Below, piece by piece: positions 15,287 to 53,049 of a DNA stretch of 64,000 bases. The notes under the pieces are model-generated. The model saw nothing but the letters and a program-made list of their open reading frames with translations, searched no databases and was not told where the DNA came from. Where the stretch lies: positions 620,001 to 684,000 of the forward strand of contig NZ_JAKVLT010000001.1 in the NCBI RefSeq assembly GCF_022484225.1. The letters run 5' to 3'. The position numbers and the translations under genes were made by a program. Source of the stretch: Pseudoramibacter sp. (GTDB lineage Bacteria; Bacillota; Clostridia; Eubacteriales; Eubacteriaceae). Positions within the stretch are counted from its first letter, which is position 1, and every line of letters starts with the position of its first letter.

Positions 15287-16645
15287 TCACTTTCCTTCAA
15301 TTTCGCTTTTGATCCGGAGAACGAGATTTTTAAAATCGGTGTTTTTCTGGATGTTTTCCGTGATTTTCTGGCAGCCGTGAATGACCGTGGAATGGTCCCG
15401 GCCGCCGAAGGCTTCGCCGATCGCGGGCAGGGACATGGTCGTCATTTCGCGGCACAGGTACATGGCGACCTGCCGGGGTGTGGTGATGGCCTTGGTGCGC
15501 CGTTTGCTGTTCATGTCTTCCACGGTGGTATTAAAGTATTTGGCCGTGATTTCCTTGATGTAATCGGCATTAATTTCATGCTGCTTTGAAACGAAGAGAT
15601 CGGCCAGGGCTTCTTTGGCGAAGGACAGCGAAATTTTTTCCCCGTGCAGCTTCGAGTAGGCGACTACCGTGGTTAGGGCGCCTTCCAGTTCCCGGATGTT
15701 GGAATGGATGTTGTTGGCGATGAAGCTCATGACGTCGTCTGGAATTTCTTCGTGGTAGGATTCAGCTTTTTTTCTTAAAATGGCCATTCGCGTTTCGAAG
15801 TTCGGCGCCGAAATATCGGTGATGAGCCCCATTTCAAAGCGGCTTCTCAGACGTTCGGCGAGCTTCGGGATTTCCTTGGGCGGACGGTCGGAACTGATGA
15901 CGATCTGCTTGTCTTCGTCGTGGAGCGCGTTGAAGGTATGGAAGAATTCTTCCTGAGTTCCTTCTTTGCCGGACAGGAACTGGATGTCGTCGATCAAGAG
16001 AATGTCGACGTTGCGGTAGCGGCTCCTGAAGGAGGTGTTGCTCTTGTTCTGGATGGCGTCGATGAATTCGTTGGTGAAGGTTTCGCAGGACACGTACACC
16101 ACTTTCTTTTCCGGGGTGTATTTTAAAATATAGTTGCCGATGGCCTGCATGAGGTGGGTTTTGCCAAGGCCGACGCCGCCGTAGATGAAAAGCGGGTTGT
16201 AGTGTTCCGAAGGGGCCTCTGCCACTGCGACGCAGGCAGCGTGGGCGAAACGGTTGTTTTCGCCGATGACAAAGCGGTCGAAGGTGTATTTCGGGTTGAT
16301 GCCGGTGCCGTTGGATTTTGCGGGTTCCGGCGCTGCTGTCTCAGTGATTTCCGGCTCAGGTTTTGCAGCATTTTCTTCGGCTTCAATTTCGTCTTCATTT
16401 AATATAAAGCGCGCGTGAATTTTGTCGTCTTTCATGATAAAAGAAAGAGCCGAGTCGGTCAGGGTCTGATAGCGGGTTTCGAGAATGGATTTCGAAAAGG
16501 ATTCCTTCGCTAATAAGTAAAAATTCTGCCCTTTGAGGGCCACTGGCTTCAGGTTGGGGAACCAGGTGGTAAAACTCACAGGCGGCAGTTCTTCCTGAAT
16601 GGTGTTGAGGGCTTTCTCCCAGATTTCGTTTAAAGAACTTTCCAC
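15287..16645 (-). CDS. dnaA: Chromosomal replication initiator DnaA
   Basis: Initiator ATPase of 452 residues. Domain I (about 1-80) is followed by an acidic, Ala/Pro/Glu-rich linker (about 85-112). The AAA+ domain has Walker A GGVGLGKT (156-163) and Walker B ILLIDD (215-220). The C-terminal DNA-binding domain has the DnaA signature region around CREMTTMSLPAIGEAFGGRD and HSTVIHGCQKI. A promoter with near-consensus boxes lies upstream (16850-16878), and its transcript would pass through the DnaA boxes at 16.7-16.84 kb, so autoregulation by DnaA is likely. Confidence 0.98.
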   Translation of the reverse strand: MESSLNEIWEKALNTIQEELPPVSFTTWFPNLKPVALKGQNFYLLAKESFSKSILETRYQTLTDSALSFIMKDDKIHARFILNEDEIEAEENAAKPEPEITETAAPEPAKSNGTGINPKYTFDRFVIGENNRFAHAACVAVAEAPSEHYNPLFIYGGVGLGKTHLMQAIGNYILKYTPEKKVVYVSCETFTNEFIDAIQNKSNTSFRSRYRNVDILLIDDIQFLSGKEGTQEEFFHTFNALHDEDKQIVISSDRPPKEIPKLAERLRSRFEMGLITDISAPNFETRMAILRKKAESYHEEIPDDVMSFIANNIHSNIRELEGALTTVVAYSKLHGEKISLSFAKEALADLFVSKQHEINADYIKEITAKYFNTTVEDMNSKRRTKAITTPRQVAMYLCREMTTMSLPAIGEAFGGRDHSTVIHGCQKITENIQKNTDFKNLVLRIKSEIEGK

Positions 16646-16699
16646 AATTTTCTCCGTACAATGATCAAATGATGTTGAAAAAAGGTCATATTTAAAAGC

Positions 16700-16850
16700 G
16701 ATTCACATGCTGTGGATAATTTTATCCCAAAAATGACAGGGGATTATTTTTGAATATGAGGGCTTTTTCCACAGTTATCCTCAGGTTTATCCACAAAATT
16801 GTAAAAAATGTGGATAAGTCATTTCATAAACTGTTGATAATGTGCATACA
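16700..16850. other. Upstream half of oriC (DnaA box cluster)
   Basis: The 366-bp gap between dnaA and rpmH holds three perfect DnaA boxes: TGTGGATAA at 16711-16719 and 16809-16817 (minus-strand orientation) and TTATCCACA at 16787-16795 (plus). One-mismatch boxes lie at 16765-16773 (TTTTCCACA), 16775-16783 (TTATCCTCA) and 16832-16840 (TGTTGATAA). The surrounding DNA is AT-rich. Gene orientation switches here from leftward to rightward, as expected at the start of bidirectional replication. Confidence 0.9.
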
Positions 16851-16878
16851 TTATAGCAAAATCTTTTGCTGTGTTCAA
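16850..16878 (-). promoter_or_regulatory. dnaA promoter
   Basis: On the minus strand TTGAAC (16873-16878), a 17-bp spacer and consensus TATAAT (16850-16855) are seen. The predicted start near 16842 places the DnaA boxes at 16711-16840 within the leader. Confidence 0.75.
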
Positions 16879-16922
16879 GCTTTCCACAGGTCTGGCCAGT
16901 GTCAAATTTTAAAGAAAATTAC

Positions 16923-16952
16923 TTGACAGAAAAGGGCGTAAAAGCATATAAT
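16923..16952 (+). promoter_or_regulatory. rpmH promoter
   Basis: Consensus TTGACA (16923-16928) and TATAAT (16947-16952) are separated by 18 bp, about 60 bp before the rpmH start. It diverges from the dnaA promoter. Confidence 0.85.
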
Positions 16953-17011
16953 TTTCTGGTAATATGGGAATTTATATTGGCTTATTGTATTTTTAAAGAG
17001 AGGAGCATGAA

Positions 17012-19531: not shown

Positions 19532-20923
19532 ATGATACAGATTTTATATGATGATGTCATTGCTGCTATCTCGACCCCGGCCGGAACAGGCGGCATCGGC
19601 ATCGTGAGACTGTCCGGGGAAAAAGCCTTTGACATTGCAGATCAGATTTTCAAATCGCCTTCGGGAACAAAAATCTCAGAAATGCCGTCTCACACGATCC
19701 ACTACGGCCATGTGGTGAATTTAGAGGGCCGCGTCATCGATGAAGTGATGCTCACGGTGATGAAGGCGCCGAAGACTTACACCCGGGAAAACATTGTGGA
19801 GATCAACTGTCACGGCGGCAGCACCGTGCTTAACATGGTCCTTCAGACAGTTATCGATGCCGGCGCGCGCCTGGCCAATCCAGGAGAATTTACGGAAAGG
19901 GCGTTTATCAACGGCCGGATCGATCTTTCAGAAGCGGAAGCCGTGATGGACGTCATCGACGCCAAAACAGAGGCGGGCGTCGCTTATTCGATGAATCAGC
20001 TTTCCGGGGGACTTTCGAAAAAATATGAGGCCATTGACAAGGGCCTTCTGCATCTTTTGACTTACATCGATGCGGCTTTGGATTATCCGGAATACGATGT
20101 GGAAGAAGTCACGGAGCGGGAACTCGACGAAAACATCCGGCATCTTAGCGGCGAAGTCGACGCGCTGCTCGAATCAGCCAAAGTGGGCAAAATCATGCGG
20201 GACGGCATCGACACCGTCATCCTCGGCGAACCCAATGTGGGGAAATCTTCTTTGATGAACAAACTGTTCAGGGAGGACAAGGCGCTGGTGACGAACATTC
20301 CGGGGACCACCCGGGACACTATTGAAGATTATATCAACATCGGCGGCGTGCCTTTTCACATTATCGATACCGCAGGCATCCGGGAAACCAGCGACGTGAT
20401 CGAACGCATGGGCGTGGAACGGGCCAAACAGATGGTCAGCCAGGCTGAACTCGTGCTTTTTATTACTGATGTTTCACGTGAAACACAGCAGAACCGTCAG
20501 GAATGGCAGAACCTGCTTCAGGACAAAAAGGTCATTTATATTTACAACAAATCAGATCTCATCGACAGCAACGCCCAGTCTGAACTCAAAGAAGATCTTC
20601 AAGACAACGAAGTGGTGCTTTCGATTAAAACTGAAGCCGGTCTCGAAAAACTTAAAAAGAAAATGGTTAAAATGGCCATCGACAGCGAGACCGTTCAGCC
20701 GTCGGACAATCCGGTGGTTTCCAATGTCCGGCACATTTCTTTGCTGAAAAAAGTAAAAGCAGATCTTAAGAGCGCCTACGCCAGCTTGACGGCAGGCATG
20801 ACCATGGATATCATCGAAATAGATTTGAAAGAAGCTTTGGATCATTTGAGACAAATTACCGGAAAGTCCCTCGGGGACGATATTATTGATCAGATTTTTG
20901 CCAATTTCTGTTTGGGCAAATAA
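19532..20923 (+). CDS. mnmE: tRNA uridine-5-carboxymethylaminomethyl GTPase MnmE
   Basis: GTPase of 463 residues that with MnmG modifies wobble uridine 34 of certain tRNAs. The N-terminal folate-binding domain begins DDVIAAISTPAGTGGIGIVR. The G domain has GEPNVGKS (232-239), TTRDT, DTAGI and NKSD. The C-terminal FxxFCxGK end (FANFCLGK) carries the catalytic Cys. The reading frame contains a perfect parS site (20470-20485) written as codons for DVSRET, so DNA-binding selection is superimposed on the coding sequence. mnmG follows after 21 bp. Confidence 0.97.
   Translation: MIQILYDDVIAAISTPAGTGGIGIVRLSGEKAFDIADQIFKSPSGTKISEMPSHTIHYGHVVNLEGRVIDEVMLTVMKAPKTYTRENIVEINCHGGSTVLNMVLQTVIDAGARLANPGEFTERAFINGRIDLSEAEAVMDVIDAKTEAGVAYSMNQLSGGLSKKYEAIDKGLLHLLTYIDAALDYPEYDVEEVTERELDENIRHLSGEVDALLESAKVGKIMRDGIDTVILGEPNVGKSSLMNKLFREDKALVTNIPGTTRDTIEDYINIGGVPFHIIDTAGIRETSDVIERMGVERAKQMVSQAELVLFITDVSRETQQNRQEWQNLLQDKKVIYIYNKSDLIDSNAQSELKEDLQDNEVVLSIKTEAGLEKLKKKMVKMAIDSETVQPSDNPVVSNVRHISLLKKVKADLKSAYASLTAGMTMDIIEIDLKEALDHLRQITGKSLGDDIIDQIFANFCLGK
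20470..20485. promoter_or_regulatory. parS site inside mnmE
   Basis: TGTTTCACGTGAAACA is a perfect 16-bp match to the ParB/Spo0J centromere consensus. It lies about 4 kb from oriC within the mnmE G domain. Confidence 0.95.
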
Positions 20924-23560: not shown

Positions 23561-23580
23561 GATGTTTCACGTGAAACATC
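23561..23580. promoter_or_regulatory. parS site before noc
   Basis: The core TGTTTCACGTGAAACA (23563-23578) is a perfect match to the parS consensus, and the flanking bases extend the palindrome to 20 bp (GATGTTTCAC/GTGAAACATC). It lies in the 47-bp gap between rsmG and the noc ribosome site, so ParB loaded here could influence noc expression. Confidence 0.95.
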
Positions 23581-23591
23581 AGGAGCATGGT

Positions 23592-24434
23592 ATGAGAAAA
23601 AAGAAAAAAGATTTAATTAAAGATCAAAAAAAATACCAGAAGCATCAAATTCTGGACGTTCCCATTGATCAAATTATTCCCAATCCAAACCAGCCGCGGC
23701 AGGTCTTTGACAGCGAAGCTTTAAAAGAACTGGCAGAATCCATTGAGACTTACGGCGTGATTCAGCCCATTCAGGTGCGAAGACTGGATACCAATCTTTA
23801 CGAACTGGTTTCAGGGGAACGGCGCCTTCGGGCCTCCAAACTGGCGAAGCAGAAAACAATCCCGGCGATTGTGGTGAGCATCAACGATCAGGATTCAGCC
23901 GTTCTGGCCATTATCGAAAATGTGCAGCGGGAAGATTTGAATTATTTCGAAGAAGCCGAGAGCTATCAGCAGCTTATCAAATACTACCACATGACCCAGG
24001 GACAGGTCGCCAAACTCATTGGGAAGTCCCAGTCCTTTGTGGCCAACAAACTGAGACTGATCAAGATGGATGACGAAGTGATTCAGACGATCAAAGAAGC
24101 CGGCCTGTCTGAACGACACGCCCGGGCACTGCTCAAAGTGCCGGACAAAGACATCCAGATCGAGGTTATTCATCAAATTAAGAAGAAGGATTTAAACGTC
24201 AAGAAGACTGAAAAGCTGGTCGAAAAAATCCGGAACGAAGTGCTGGTGAACAATTACGATGAAAAGATCACCCCGGGAAAGAAGGCCAGGGTGAAATCTT
24301 TTATCAATGCGCAGATTTATCTCAACACGATCAAATCCGCTTTTAAGGAAATCCAGCGTACCAAACAGGATGCTCAGTATCGCGAAAAAGAAAAAGAAGA
24401 CAAAATAGTTGTGACGATCACGATTCCAAAATAA
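23592..24434 (+). CDS. noc: Noc-type ParB paralogue (nucleoid occlusion protein)
   Basis: ParB-family CTP-dependent clamp of 280 residues. The CTP-binding domain has NPNQPR and SGERRLRASKLA; the helix-turn-helix reads TQGQVAKLIGKSQSFVANKLRLIKM (two segments). The four residues that switch ParB to Noc specificity in published work (Q173, K179, K184, R201 in Caulobacter numbering) are all present: GKSQ, ANK, LIK and SERHARA. ParB encoded downstream lacks this set. The start at 23592 has AGGAG six bases upstream; an ATG at 23562 would translate the parS site as MFHVKH and is rejected. The N-terminus MRKKKKDLIKDQKKYQKH is strongly basic with no obvious membrane-binding amphipathic helix. Confidence 0.88.
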   Translation: MRKKKKDLIKDQKKYQKHQILDVPIDQIIPNPNQPRQVFDSEALKELAESIETYGVIQPIQVRRLDTNLYELVSGERRLRASKLAKQKTIPAIVVSINDQDSAVLAIIENVQREDLNYFEEAESYQQLIKYYHMTQGQVAKLIGKSQSFVANKLRLIKMDDEVIQTIKEAGLSERHARALLKVPDKDIQIEVIHQIKKKDLNVKKTEKLVEKIRNEVLVNNYDEKITPGKKARVKSFINAQIYLNTIKSAFKEIQRTKQDAQYREKEKEDKIVVTITIPK

Positions 24435-24465: not shown

Positions 24466-25242
24466 ATGTCAAGAGCAAAGGTAATTTCAATATTTAATCA
24501 AAAGGGTGGCGTCGGCAAGACGACGACGTGTATGAATTTGACGGCGGCGCTGAGTATAGATGGATATCGTGTTTTGACAGTCGATATTGATCCCCAGGGC
24601 AACACCACAAGCGGTTTCGGCATTGAAAAAAACAAACTGGACAAAAGTATTTACGATGCGCTGATCAACGGCCAGGATTTGCGGGAAGTCATTTTAACTA
24701 CTGGCTACGACCGGCTCAATCTGCTGCCGTCCAATATCGATCTGGCCGGTTCTGAAATCGAACTGGCCCACATGTCTCAGAGAGAGACGCGGCTGAGAAA
24801 GGTGCTCGAACCGATTCTGGAATACTACGACTACGTGTTTGTAGACTGTCCGCCGTCCCTCGGCCTGCTGACGATCAACGCCCTGACGGCTTCGGATTCT
24901 GTTTTAATTCCCATTCAATGCGAATACTACGCTTTGGAAGGGGTGGGCCAGCTGATTTCGACCATCAATCTGGTGAAAAAAGGGCTGAACCCAAAAATTG
25001 AAATTGAAGGTGTTTTGATGACCATGTACGATTCCCGGACGAATCTCGCGATTCAGGTCGTCAACGAAGTGAAGTCTTATTTTAAGGATAAGGTCTATCA
25101 CGTGAAAATTCCAAGAAACATCCGCCTGGCAGAAGCCCCGAGTTTCGGCGAGACCATTTTTGAAAATGCACCCAATTCAAAGGGCGCAGTCGCCTATGCG
25201 GAACTGGCAAAGGAATTTATCGGGAGGGAACATGTCAAGTAA
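24466..25242 (+). CDS. parA: Chromosome-partitioning ATPase ParA (Soj)
   Basis: Deviant-Walker ATPase of 258 residues. The P-loop KGGVGKTTT lies at about residues 12-20 with the signature Lys, DIDPQGNTTSGFG follows (Walker A'), and FVDCPPSLGLLTINAL is the Walker B region. Soj-type ParA works with ParB to separate origins and in Bacillus also regulates DnaA. AAGGAAGG lies before the ATG. Its last 11 bp overlap parB. Confidence 0.96.
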   Translation: MSRAKVISIFNQKGGVGKTTTCMNLTAALSIDGYRVLTVDIDPQGNTTSGFGIEKNKLDKSIYDALINGQDLREVILTTGYDRLNLLPSNIDLAGSEIELAHMSQRETRLRKVLEPILEYYDYVFVDCPPSLGLLTINALTASDSVLIPIQCEYYALEGVGQLISTINLVKKGLNPKIEIEGVLMTMYDSRTNLAIQVVNEVKSYFKDKVYHVKIPRNIRLAEAPSFGETIFENAPNSKGAVAYAELAKEFIGREHVK

Positions 25243-26134
25243 AAAACATCACAACGGACTTGGAAAAGGATTAGCGGCGCTCATTTCAGAAGACATTCAC
25301 TTTGACGAGAACGGCAGTCTGGAATCAGAAGCCCAGAGCGGAGACACCCGTCAGGACGGCGGGCTCATCGTCGAACTGCCCATCGGCAAAATACGTCCCA
25401 ACAAGGAACAGCCGAGAAAGCATTTTGACCAGCGGGCCCTGGAAGAACTGGCGACTTCGATCAAAGAACACGGTGTGCTTCAGCCGCTGGTGGTCAAAAA
25501 AGAAGACGGCGCCTACACCATCATTGCCGGCGAACGGCGGTGGCGCGCCGCGACCCTGGCGGGGCTCGATACCATTCCGGTCATCGTCAAGGATTTATCC
25601 GACCGGGAAGTGGTCGAAATTGCGCTGATCGAAAATGTGCAGCGGGAAGACCTCAACCCCATCGAAGAAGCCATGGCCTTTGAACAGCTTTCCAAAGAGT
25701 ACAATTTGACCCAGGGCGAAATCGGCATCCGCATCGGGAAAAGCCGCGCCGCTGTGACCAATGTCATGCGCCTTTTGAAACTGCCGGTTTCGGTGCGGCA
25801 GATGGTTTTGAAGAATCAGCTCAGCGGCGGCCATGCCCGGGCCCTTTTGGGACTGGAAGACAGCAAGATGATGGAAGCTCTGGCCAAGAAAGCCATCGAA
25901 CGGAACTGGTCGGTCCGGGAAATGGAAGATGCGGTGCGCCGGGTCAAGCATCCCCGGAAGCCCAAGGCACAGAAAAACAAAGATCCGTATCTCGTGGACG
26001 TCGAAGATCAATTAAGCAAGCATTTAGGCGCATCCGTTAAACTGACTCCGAAAAACAAAAAAGGAAGCGGAAAAATCACCATTGATTATGCTTCGACAGA
26101 CGATTTAAATCGGATTCTAGAACTCATCAAATAA
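25232..26134 (+). CDS. parB: Chromosome-partitioning protein ParB (Spo0J)
   Basis: ParB/Spo0J CTPase of 300 residues that loads at parS, slides as a clamp and recruits SMC. The start MSSKKHHNGLGKGLAAL contains the GLGRGL-like motif used to stimulate ParA. The CTP-binding motif is AGERRWRAA (about 92-100), and the helix-turn-helix is TQGEIGIRIGKSRAAV with GKSR and SGGHARA (Arg and Gly at the discriminating positions), consistent with parS binding. The ATG at 25232 with GGGAGG upstream is preferred to an ATG at 25160 deep inside parA. Confidence 0.95.
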   Translation: MSSKKHHNGLGKGLAALISEDIHFDENGSLESEAQSGDTRQDGGLIVELPIGKIRPNKEQPRKHFDQRALEELATSIKEHGVLQPLVVKKEDGAYTIIAGERRWRAATLAGLDTIPVIVKDLSDREVVEIALIENVQREDLNPIEEAMAFEQLSKEYNLTQGEIGIRIGKSRAAVTNVMRLLKLPVSVRQMVLKNQLSGGHARALLGLEDSKMMEALAKKAIERNWSVREMEDAVRRVKHPRKPKAQKNKDPYLVDVEDQLSKHLGASVKLTPKNKKGSGKITIDYASTDDLNRILELIK

Positions 26135-34595: not shown

Positions 34596-35435
34596 ATGCC
34601 CTTATCCATAGTGGGAACGCCCATCGGCAATCTCGAAGATTTTTCGCCCCGGGCGGTCCGTGTGCTGCAGGAGGCCGATCTGATTGCGGCTGAAGACACC
34701 CGGAACACCCTCAAGCTGCTCAACCATTTTGAGATTCATACGCCGATGACGGCGTATCACAAATTCAACGAAAAAACCGTCACCGGAGAGTTGGTTCAGA
34801 AAATGCAGGCCGGCGCACACATCGCCCTGGTCTCTGACGCCGGAATGCCGGTGCTCTCCGATCCCGGCCGCATTCTGGTGCGCGCCTGCCAGGACGCAGG
34901 GGTTCCGGTTACGGCGGTGCCGGGGCCGACGGCGTCGGTGACGGCCGTGGCTCTTTCGGGGATCGACTGCCGGCATTTTGTCTTTTTCGGATTTTTGGGA
35001 AAATCTTCAAAAGAAATTCGGGAAGGGTTAGAGGCCGTGGAAAAATCGCCGTGGCCGGTGGTGCTTTACGAAAGTCCTCACCGGCTGCTCAAAACCCTGG
35101 AGCAGATGGCCGGACGGTTCCCAGACCGGGAAATGAGTATTTCCCGGGAAATAACCAAGCGCTATGAAGAAACCCGCCGGGACACCGTTGCGGGCCAGCT
35201 GGCCTATTTTACGGCTCATCCTCCCAAAGGAGAATTTGTGCTGGTGGTTGACAAGGGTGATAAACTGGACAGCAAAGCCGCACAAATCAAGGCTTTGTCA
35301 GCGGGCAGCGCCGCCGATCATGTGGCGTATTATCTGCGCCAGGGACTCAGCGAAAAAGACGCGATGAAGGCCGCCGCCAAAGACCGGGGCGTTTCGAAGC
35401 GGGAAATCTACAAAATCGTCAAAATTGACGGGTAG
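34596..35435 (+). CDS. rsmI: 16S rRNA (cytidine-2'-O) methyltransferase RsmI
   Basis: SAM-dependent methyltransferase of 279 residues that modifies C1402 (E. coli numbering) of 16S rRNA. Family motifs are SIVGTPIGNLEDFSPRAVRVL, AAEDTRNTLKLL, ALVSDAGMPVLSDPG and GPTASVTA. The C-terminal part ends KAAAKDRGVSKREIYKIV. A perfect 16-bp Noc-binding palindrome (35138-35153) is embedded in codons for SISREI. GAAGGAG precedes the ATG. It follows dnaB by 18 bp. Confidence 0.95.
   Translation: MPLSIVGTPIGNLEDFSPRAVRVLQEADLIAAEDTRNTLKLLNHFEIHTPMTAYHKFNEKTVTGELVQKMQAGAHIALVSDAGMPVLSDPGRILVRACQDAGVPVTAVPGPTASVTAVALSGIDCRHFVFFGFLGKSSKEIREGLEAVEKSPWPVVLYESPHRLLKTLEQMAGRFPDREMSISREITKRYEETRRDTVAGQLAYFTAHPPKGEFVLVVDKGDKLDSKAAQIKALSAGSAADHVAYYLRQGLSEKDAMKAAAKDRGVSKREIYKIVKIDG
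35138..35153. promoter_or_regulatory. Noc-binding site inside rsmI
   Basis: TATTTCCCGGGAAATA is identical to the Noc-binding sequence described in Bacillus subtilis, a perfect 16-bp palindrome. Reading other CCCGGG occurrences in the window shows none with matching flanks. A Noc-type protein is encoded 11 kb away. Confidence 0.85.
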
Positions 35436-52494: not shown

Positions 52495-53049
52495 TTAATG
52501 GTAGCGGCGGTCGATTTCCCGGCCGATTTCCCGGTAAATGGCTTCCAGGTTGTCGGCAAAGAGAATCGTATCAAAAGTGGCCTGATCGAGGAAGCCGTGT
52601 TCGACCATTTTATGGTACATTTCCCGCATGGGTTCGTAATACTGGTTGGGGTTGTAGAATACGGCGGGTTTGTCGTGGCGGTGAAGCTTGCGGAGAGAAA
52701 TGATTTCCGTGATTTCTTCGATGGTGCCGGGGCCGCCGGGCAGGGCGATGAAGAAGTCGCCGTAGTCGCGCATCATGGTCTTGCGTTTGGCCATGGTTTT
52801 AACGGTGAAGGTTTTGGTCAGCCCGTCGTGGGGCAGTTCAATGGCCTTCAAAAATTCTGGTATGATGCCGTAGACTTCGCCGCCGGCTTTCAGGGTGGCG
52901 TCGGCAACGGCGCCCATGAGGCCGGTCCAGCCGCCGCCGTAAATGAGCCGGTGGCCGTGCTGGCCGATCCAGGTGCCGAGGGCTTCGGCGTCCTTGCGGT
53001 ACTGGGCGAGGTCGCCGAATTTTGATCCGCAGTAAACGGTGATGTTCAT
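52495..53049 (-). CDS. LOG-family protein (TIGR00730)
   Basis: A 184-residue Rossmann-fold protein of the LOG family, related to cytokinin-activating phosphoribohydrolases that split nucleoside 5'-monophosphates. Motifs are ITVYCGSKFG, YGGGWTGLMGAVADATL and the signature PGGPGTIEEITE (about 111-122). The ATG at 53049 has AAAGGA upstream. It follows the pyrophosphatase gene by 23 bp on the minus strand. Its substrate in a clostridium is not known; many members act on AMP. Confidence 0.9.
   Translation of the reverse strand: MNITVYCGSKFGDLAQYRKDAEALGTWIGQHGHRLIYGGGWTGLMGAVADATLKAGGEVYGIIPEFLKAIELPHDGLTKTFTVKTMAKRKTMMRDYGDFFIALPGGPGTIEEITEIISLRKLHRHDKPAVFYNPNQYYEPMREMYHKMVEHGFLDQATFDTILFADNLEAIYREIGREIDRRYH

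What the first reader, a model, noticed from the sequence alone, without database searches (positions are those of the whole stretch)
35138..35153. Perfect 16-bp Noc-binding palindrome inside rsmI
The exact Bacillus Noc site is embedded in a coding region 11 kb from noc. A specified 16-mer has a tiny chance of occurring in 64 kb, and other CCCGGG occurrences in the window lack the flanks. Together with the Noc code above, it suggests an active nucleoid-occlusion network.
Basis: partly seen in the sequence, partly recalled or inferred. Interest (0 to 1): 0.65.

Follow-up and report, generated by a model that had tools for sequence, protein, structure and literature searches.

The report
Conserved Noc-binding site inside rsmI
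A 16-base DNA address for the chromosome-guarding protein Noc is written inside an unrelated gene (rsmI), belongs to a set of such sites clustered around the replication origin, and has been kept unchanged by selection across a bacterial family wherever the Noc gene is present, but has decayed in the one genus that lost Noc.

Summary
TATTTCCCGGGAAATA lies at 35138-35153 inside rsmI, 10.7 kb from a noc gene with the known NBS-reading residues. The genome (1.97 Mb, Pseudoramibacter lineage, Eubacteriaceae) holds nine exact 14-bp NBS cores (0.03-0.04 expected, reversed control 0) and nine one-mismatch copies. All 18 lie within 61% of the ori-ter half-length from oriC; none lies around the terminus. 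It is not the only copy, and the synonymous codons do not vary freely: in 18 noc-bearing genomes of eight genera (between-genus RsmI identity about 56%) the ISRE codons are always ATT TCC [C/A]GG GAA, with 2 synonymous changes where degeneracy-matched codon sets never had so few in 100,000 draws. In the 19 genomes of the one genus lacking noc, the same codons changed 19 times and look ordinary. Noc binding, spreading and division inhibition are inferred. The Bacillus membrane-anchor motif is not recognisable in this Noc.

The parts
35138..35153 (.). Noc-binding site (NBS) TATTTCCCGGGAAATA embedded in the ISREI codons of rsmI
   Evidence: exact match; conserved in 18 of 18 noc+ family members within one mismatch of the 14-bp core
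34596..35435 (+). rsmI, 16S rRNA (cytidine-1402-2'-O)-methyltransferase, host gene of the site
   Evidence: TIGR00096 E=4e-73
23562..24434 (+). noc, ParB-family protein with the four NBS specificity residues Q/K/K/R; the likelier start is the ATG at 23592 (MRKKKKDL...)
   Evidence: TIGR04285 301 bits, below its cut-off of 315; best PDB hits are Noc 7nfu, 7ol9, 7ng0; residues read against PMC7383237
24466..25242 (+). soj/parA
   Evidence: ParA-family hits
25232..26134 (+). spo0J/parB (start set by inference to the ATG at 25232), carrying ParB-type R and G at the two base-specific positions
   Evidence: TIGR00180 parB_part E=3.4e-58; sequence
23563..23578 (.). parS site TGTTTCACGTGAAACA overlapping the 5' end of the noc ORF
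   Evidence: exact match
20470..20485 (.). second exact parS, in the ORF 19532-20923 (read as mnmE from gene order, not tested)
   Evidence: exact match
16646..17010 (.). probable oriC between dnaA and the next gene (rpmH-like): AT-rich, several TTATCCACA-like DnaA boxes
   Evidence: sequence, dnaA, sampled genome skew minimum near 600 kb and maximum near 1600 kb
52526..52539 (.). one-mismatch NBS-like site ATTTCCCGGTAAAT, function uncertain

Best explanation
The palindrome is a genuine Noc-binding site (NBS) kept by selection on DNA sequence inside the rsmI coding region, about 18 kb from oriC. It is one of nine exact (up to 18 including one-mismatch) NBS placed around the origin half of the chromosome. 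Most likely mechanism: a Noc dimer nucleates on the site through its QKKR recognition residues, loads CTP, closes into a clamp and slides over neighbouring DNA. The origin-proximal chromosome is thereby marked with Noc, the terminus is left free, and division is timed to segregation. Shown here: the sites, their ori bias, the specificity residues and the noc-dependent synonymous constraint. Inferred from Bacillus and Staphylococcus work: binding, CTP-dependent spreading and inhibition of division. Uncertain: membrane tethering, because the Bacillus amphipathic motif is not recognisable.
For: Nine exact 14-bp cores against 0.03-0.04 expected, control 0. All 18 sites with at most one mismatch lie within 0.61 of the half-chromosome from oriC, KS p=0.0025; the 1.05-Mb gap between exact sites centres at 1589 kb, beside the GC-skew terminus near 1600 kb. 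Same pattern in G008, a 4.4-Mb relative: 13 of 14 sites within 0.34, KS p=2e-5. noc found in all 21 genomes of eight genera and in none of the 19 g3 genomes; in the five g3 loci read, rsmG, soj and parB lie together with no noc. Site codons ATT/TCC/MGG/GAA in 18 of 18 noc+ genomes, ranks 1, 2, 3 and 9 of 120 columns for synonymous identity; in g3 ranks 47-158 of 213. Parsimony: 2 synonymous changes on a tree of length 5.38 against 19 on a tree of length 1.78; 0 of 100,000 against 66,796 of 100,000 matched random codon sets. The T before the core is kept in 16 of 18 although its codon's amino acid is S, A, T or C. Eight of the nine sites recur at the same place in at least one other species of the genus.
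Against: No binding data. g3 is one clade, so the noc/site association rests on one loss event. Two of the 19 noc-less genomes keep an exact rsmI site, and the htpG site with the same ISRE motif is exact in 7 of 18 noc-less genomes, so exact matches can persist or arise by codon preference. Noc scores 301 against the TIGR04285 cut-off of 315, and the N-terminal membrane helix is not evident.
Confidence: 0.9

Rival explanations
1. Chance: the RsmI peptide ISREITK together with common codons spells the palindrome, with no DNA-level function.
For: Given the peptide, codon usage gives about 3% for the four core codons. htpG carries the same ISRE motif and is exact in 7 of 18 noc-less genomes.
Against: Probability over one genome per lineage is about 10^-15 if independent (an overstatement because of shared ancestry). 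Matched-codon test 0 of 100,000 in noc+ genomes, ordinary in noc- genomes. Conservation persists over rsmI GC3 from 0.15 to 0.75.
Confidence: 0.04
2. Constraint on mRNA structure or translation (a hairpin or codon-pair effect in rsmI), not on Noc binding.
For: In this genome the site can pair with an upstream CCGGGAAAU to form a hairpin.
Against: The hairpin's upstream arm is present only in part of g1 and in g6 and is missing in g2, g4, g5, g7, g8 and g9. Fold z-score is only -1.6. The same palindrome recurs in other genes, other frames and one intergenic place with origin bias, and the constraint disappears with noc.
Confidence: 0.03
3. A Noc-NBS system whose main job here is not membrane-based division occlusion but another origin-linked role, such as replication-initiation control or chromosome organisation. 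(This is a different output of the same site, not an alternative to Noc binding.)
For: Most Noc proteins of the family lack a recognisable Bacillus-type N-terminal helix. S. aureus Noc also controls replication initiation (PMC5540599).
Against: Short or basic N-termini (MRKKKKDL, MKSIIESIVE) could still touch membranes; start codons are uncertain; the hydrophobic-moment test did not discriminate. The site distribution is the one expected for occlusion.
Confidence: 0.25

Closest known systems
Noc-binding sites of Bacillus subtilis (16-bp NBS, Wu et al. 2009; cited in PMC8429893, PMC4331003)
   Same: Same core ATTTCCCGGGAAAT, scattered in the origin-proximal part and absent near the terminus, with a cognate Noc gene beside soj-spo0J
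   Different: Nine exact sites in a smaller genome of an anaerobic clostridial family; the rsmI site is shown to be conserved at codon level over the whole family
Staphylococcus aureus NBS/Noc (PMC5540599)
   Same: Core consensus identical to that of B. subtilis, ori-biased distribution (41 ChIP loci)
   Different: Experimentally mapped; Noc there also controls replication initiation
parS sites of ParB/Spo0J
   Same: Related 16-bp palindrome read by the paralogue; two exact parS lie in the window
   Different: Two base positions per half-site differ (PMC7383237), and the two exact parS are both within about 7 kb of oriC (window 20470 and 23563)

Membership tests
Noc-binding site (NBS) | matches the consensus ATTTCCCGGGAAAT / 16-bp TATTTCCCGGGAAATA | tested here: met
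   exact at 35138-35153
Noc-binding site (NBS) | many copies, origin-proximal, absent around the terminus | tested here: met
Noc-binding site (NBS) | maintained where noc is present and relaxed where it is absent | tested here: met
   (one loss event; two noc-less genomes keep an exact copy)
Noc-binding site (NBS) | bound by Noc in vitro or in vivo | not testable with these tools
   needs ChIP-seq, EMSA or BLI
Noc (nucleoid occlusion protein) | specificity residues Q173/K179/K184/R201 (Caulobacter ParB numbering) | tested here: met
   GKSQSFVANKLRLIK...SERHAR, against PMC7383237; same in relatives
Noc (nucleoid occlusion protein) | ParB paralogue next to rsmG-soj-spo0J | tested here: met
Noc (nucleoid occlusion protein) | ParB-box/CTP motifs (GERRxRA, ENxQRE) | tested here: met
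   GERRLRA and ENVQREDLN; aligned to PDB 7nfu, 7ol9, 7ng0. CTP binding itself not testable
Noc (nucleoid occlusion protein) | N-terminal membrane-targeting amphipathic helix | tested here: inconclusive
   Bacillus-type motif not seen; starts MFHVKHQEHG or MRKKKKDL; start codon uncertain; moment test not discriminating
Noc (nucleoid occlusion protein) | NCBIfam TIGR04285 curated score | tested here: not met
   301.3 bits against cut-off 315. A naming threshold, not a biological feature; I therefore claim an NBS-reading Noc-type ParB paralogue rather than a proven canonical Noc

The most novel reading that the evidence does not exclude
In Eubacteriaceae a Noc lacking the Bacillus membrane anchor is nevertheless under selection strong enough to freeze codons in rsmI over family-wide divergence, so Noc-NBS may serve an origin-linked function that does not need membrane tethering; rsmI would be an ancestral, nearly immovable Noc loading site.
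Probability: 0.25. Interest if true: 0.7.

Novelty: new member of a known kind. Interest (0 to 1): 0.5.

Why it matters
It is a clear case of a chromosome-organising site imposing codon choice on a host gene over family-wide divergence, with a natural knock-out (the genus that lost noc) in which the constraint vanishes. It extends an ori-centred Noc-NBS network to strictly anaerobic Eubacteriaceae, where the literature searches made here found no Noc study, and it raises a testable question: whether Noc without a recognisable Bacillus-type membrane helix still occludes division.

Tried and rejected
mRNA hairpin as cause: partner arm not conserved across genera. Pure codon chance: rejected by the matched-codon test, though it is a fair worry for single sites, as htpG shows. 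rsmI site as a feature of all Clostridia: not so; in 391 class genomes the embedded form was found in the family and in only one other family (G115, one mismatch). Hydrophobic moment to detect a membrane helix: did not separate the candidates from the Bacillus-type N-terminus (whose reference string was from memory). A first reading of relatives' rsmI without turning minus-strand loci was wrong and was redone. Literature searches for rsmI with Noc, and for Noc in Clostridioides difficile, gave nothing relevant.

Full report
OBSERVATION. TATTTCCCGGGAAATA is at window 35138-35153, in frame in rsmI (34596-35435; TIGR00096), coding ...M-S-ISREI-T-K.... It is the only exact 14-bp core in the window; one one-mismatch copy is at 52526-52539. 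The window is G000:C1:620001-684000 of a one-contig, 1,965,548-bp genome. The nearest named relatives of its Noc are a Eubacteriaceae MAG (94%) and Pseudoramibacter porci (85%), so it belongs to the Pseudoramibacter lineage.

NETWORK. The genome has nine exact cores and nine one-mismatch cores; the reversed pattern has none. Markov models of order 1-3 expect 0.03-0.04 exact copies (higher orders give up to 0.4 but are contaminated by the site itself being in the sample). dnaA and an oriC-like region lie at window 15287-17010, i.e. about 636.7 kb in the genome. Sampled GC skew turns near 600 kb and near 1600 kb. All nine exact sites lie within 0.50, and all 18 within 0.61, of the half-chromosome from oriC (KS p=0.006 and 0.0025). 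The 1.05-Mb arc free of exact sites is centred at 1589 kb, at the terminus. Part of that arc is AT-rich (about 38% GC at 1.5-1.7 Mb), which also lowers chance matches there. A 4.4-Mb relative (G008, ori taken at about 690 kb next to its noc) shows the same: 13 of 14 sites within 0.34, p=2e-5. Eight of the nine exact sites recur at the same place in another species of the genus: in tex, htpG (Hsp90), a UPF0047 gene, rsmI, cbiJ and three others; the ninth is intergenic. They use all three reading frames.

READER PROTEIN. Window 23562-24434 is a ParB paralogue between rsmG and soj-spo0J. Its closest solved structures are Noc proteins 7nfu, 7ol9 and 7ng0. It has Q, K, K and R at the four positions that switch ParB to NBS recognition (PMC7383237), while the window's ParB has R and G at the two base-specific positions. 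It scores 301 bits for TIGR04285, just under the naming cut-off of 315.

CONSERVATION TEST. In the family (40 genomes held), noc is present in all 21 genomes of eight genera and absent from all 19 genomes of genus g3 (only ParB-level hits or weaker). In the five g3 loci read, rsmG, soj and parB adjoin with no noc between. I read the rsmI codons in 18 noc+ and 19 noc- genomes. In noc+ genomes the ISRE codons are ATT 18/18, TCC 18/18, CGG 13 or AGG 5, GAA 18/18. The neighbouring codons (S181, I186, T187, K188) vary, yet the base before the core stays T in 16 of 18 even where the amino acid is A, T or C. Among 120 comparable columns these four rank 1, 2, 3 and 9 for synonymous identity between genera. 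In noc- genomes they rank 47, 53, 93 and 158 of 213. On the RsmI tree, 2 synonymous changes occurred in noc+ lineages (tree length 5.38) and 19 in the noc- clade (length 1.78); degeneracy-matched random codon sets had as few in 0 and 66,796 of 100,000 draws respectively. The five AGG cases give ATTTCCAGGGAAAT, a change at a central base only; in G008 other near-consensus sites also vary at the centre.

CAUTIONS. htpG, with the same ISRE motif, is exact in all five species of the genus but variable in other noc+ genera and exact in 7 of 18 noc-less genomes. Two noc-less genomes keep an exact rsmI site. The noc loss is one clade, hence probably one event. In a class-wide search (391 genomes) the embedded rsmI form occurs only in this family and once elsewhere (G115, whose rsmI has a one-mismatch core).

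MECHANISM. Established for B. [quoted passage not shown]). PMC4331003 reports that helix in all homologues its authors examined. Here the N-terminus reads MFHVKHQEHGMRKKKKDL..., and in relatives MKSIIESIVEQ..., METGMKKTLN..., MRFFKKDKK... and so on. The Bacillus motif is not recognisable, but start codons are uncertain (a parS overlaps the 5' end) and my moment calculation did not discriminate. So DNA marking by Noc is well supported, membrane-based occlusion is plausible, and a different output cannot be excluded.

VERDICT. Both of its refutation conditions were tested and not met. The finding is a new, unusually well conserved member of a known kind.

Noticed in passing
window 23563-23578: An exact parS overlaps the 5' end of the noc ORF (encoding MFHVKH); in several relatives a parS-like string (VSRET or FHVKH in translation) sits just upstream of the noc core, in varying frames.
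   Followed up: partly
G000:C1 about 1500-1705 kb: The terminus region is much more AT-rich (about 38% GC) than most of the rest (about 50-57%) in the sampled stretches, perhaps horizontally acquired DNA.
   Followed up: no
Noc N-termini, L066-L095 and L196-L225: Noc proteins of Eubacteriaceae and relatives often lack the Bacillus-type N-terminal motif although the DNA-reading residues are kept.
   Followed up: partly
L003, L140, L151, L153, L157, L170, L194, L195: htpG (Hsp90) carries a second NBS in its ISREM motif, exact throughout the genus; also exact in several noc-less genomes.
   Followed up: yes
window 52514-52539: Two overlapping NBS-like partial sites (ATTTCCCGGCCGATTTCCCGGTAAAT) in an ORF on the minus strand.
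   Followed up: no
L175 (G115, another family): An rsmI outside the family with GTTTCCCGGGAAAT at the same codons; that genome also has a Noc-like hit (200 bits). Shared ancestry or convergence not tested.
   Followed up: partly
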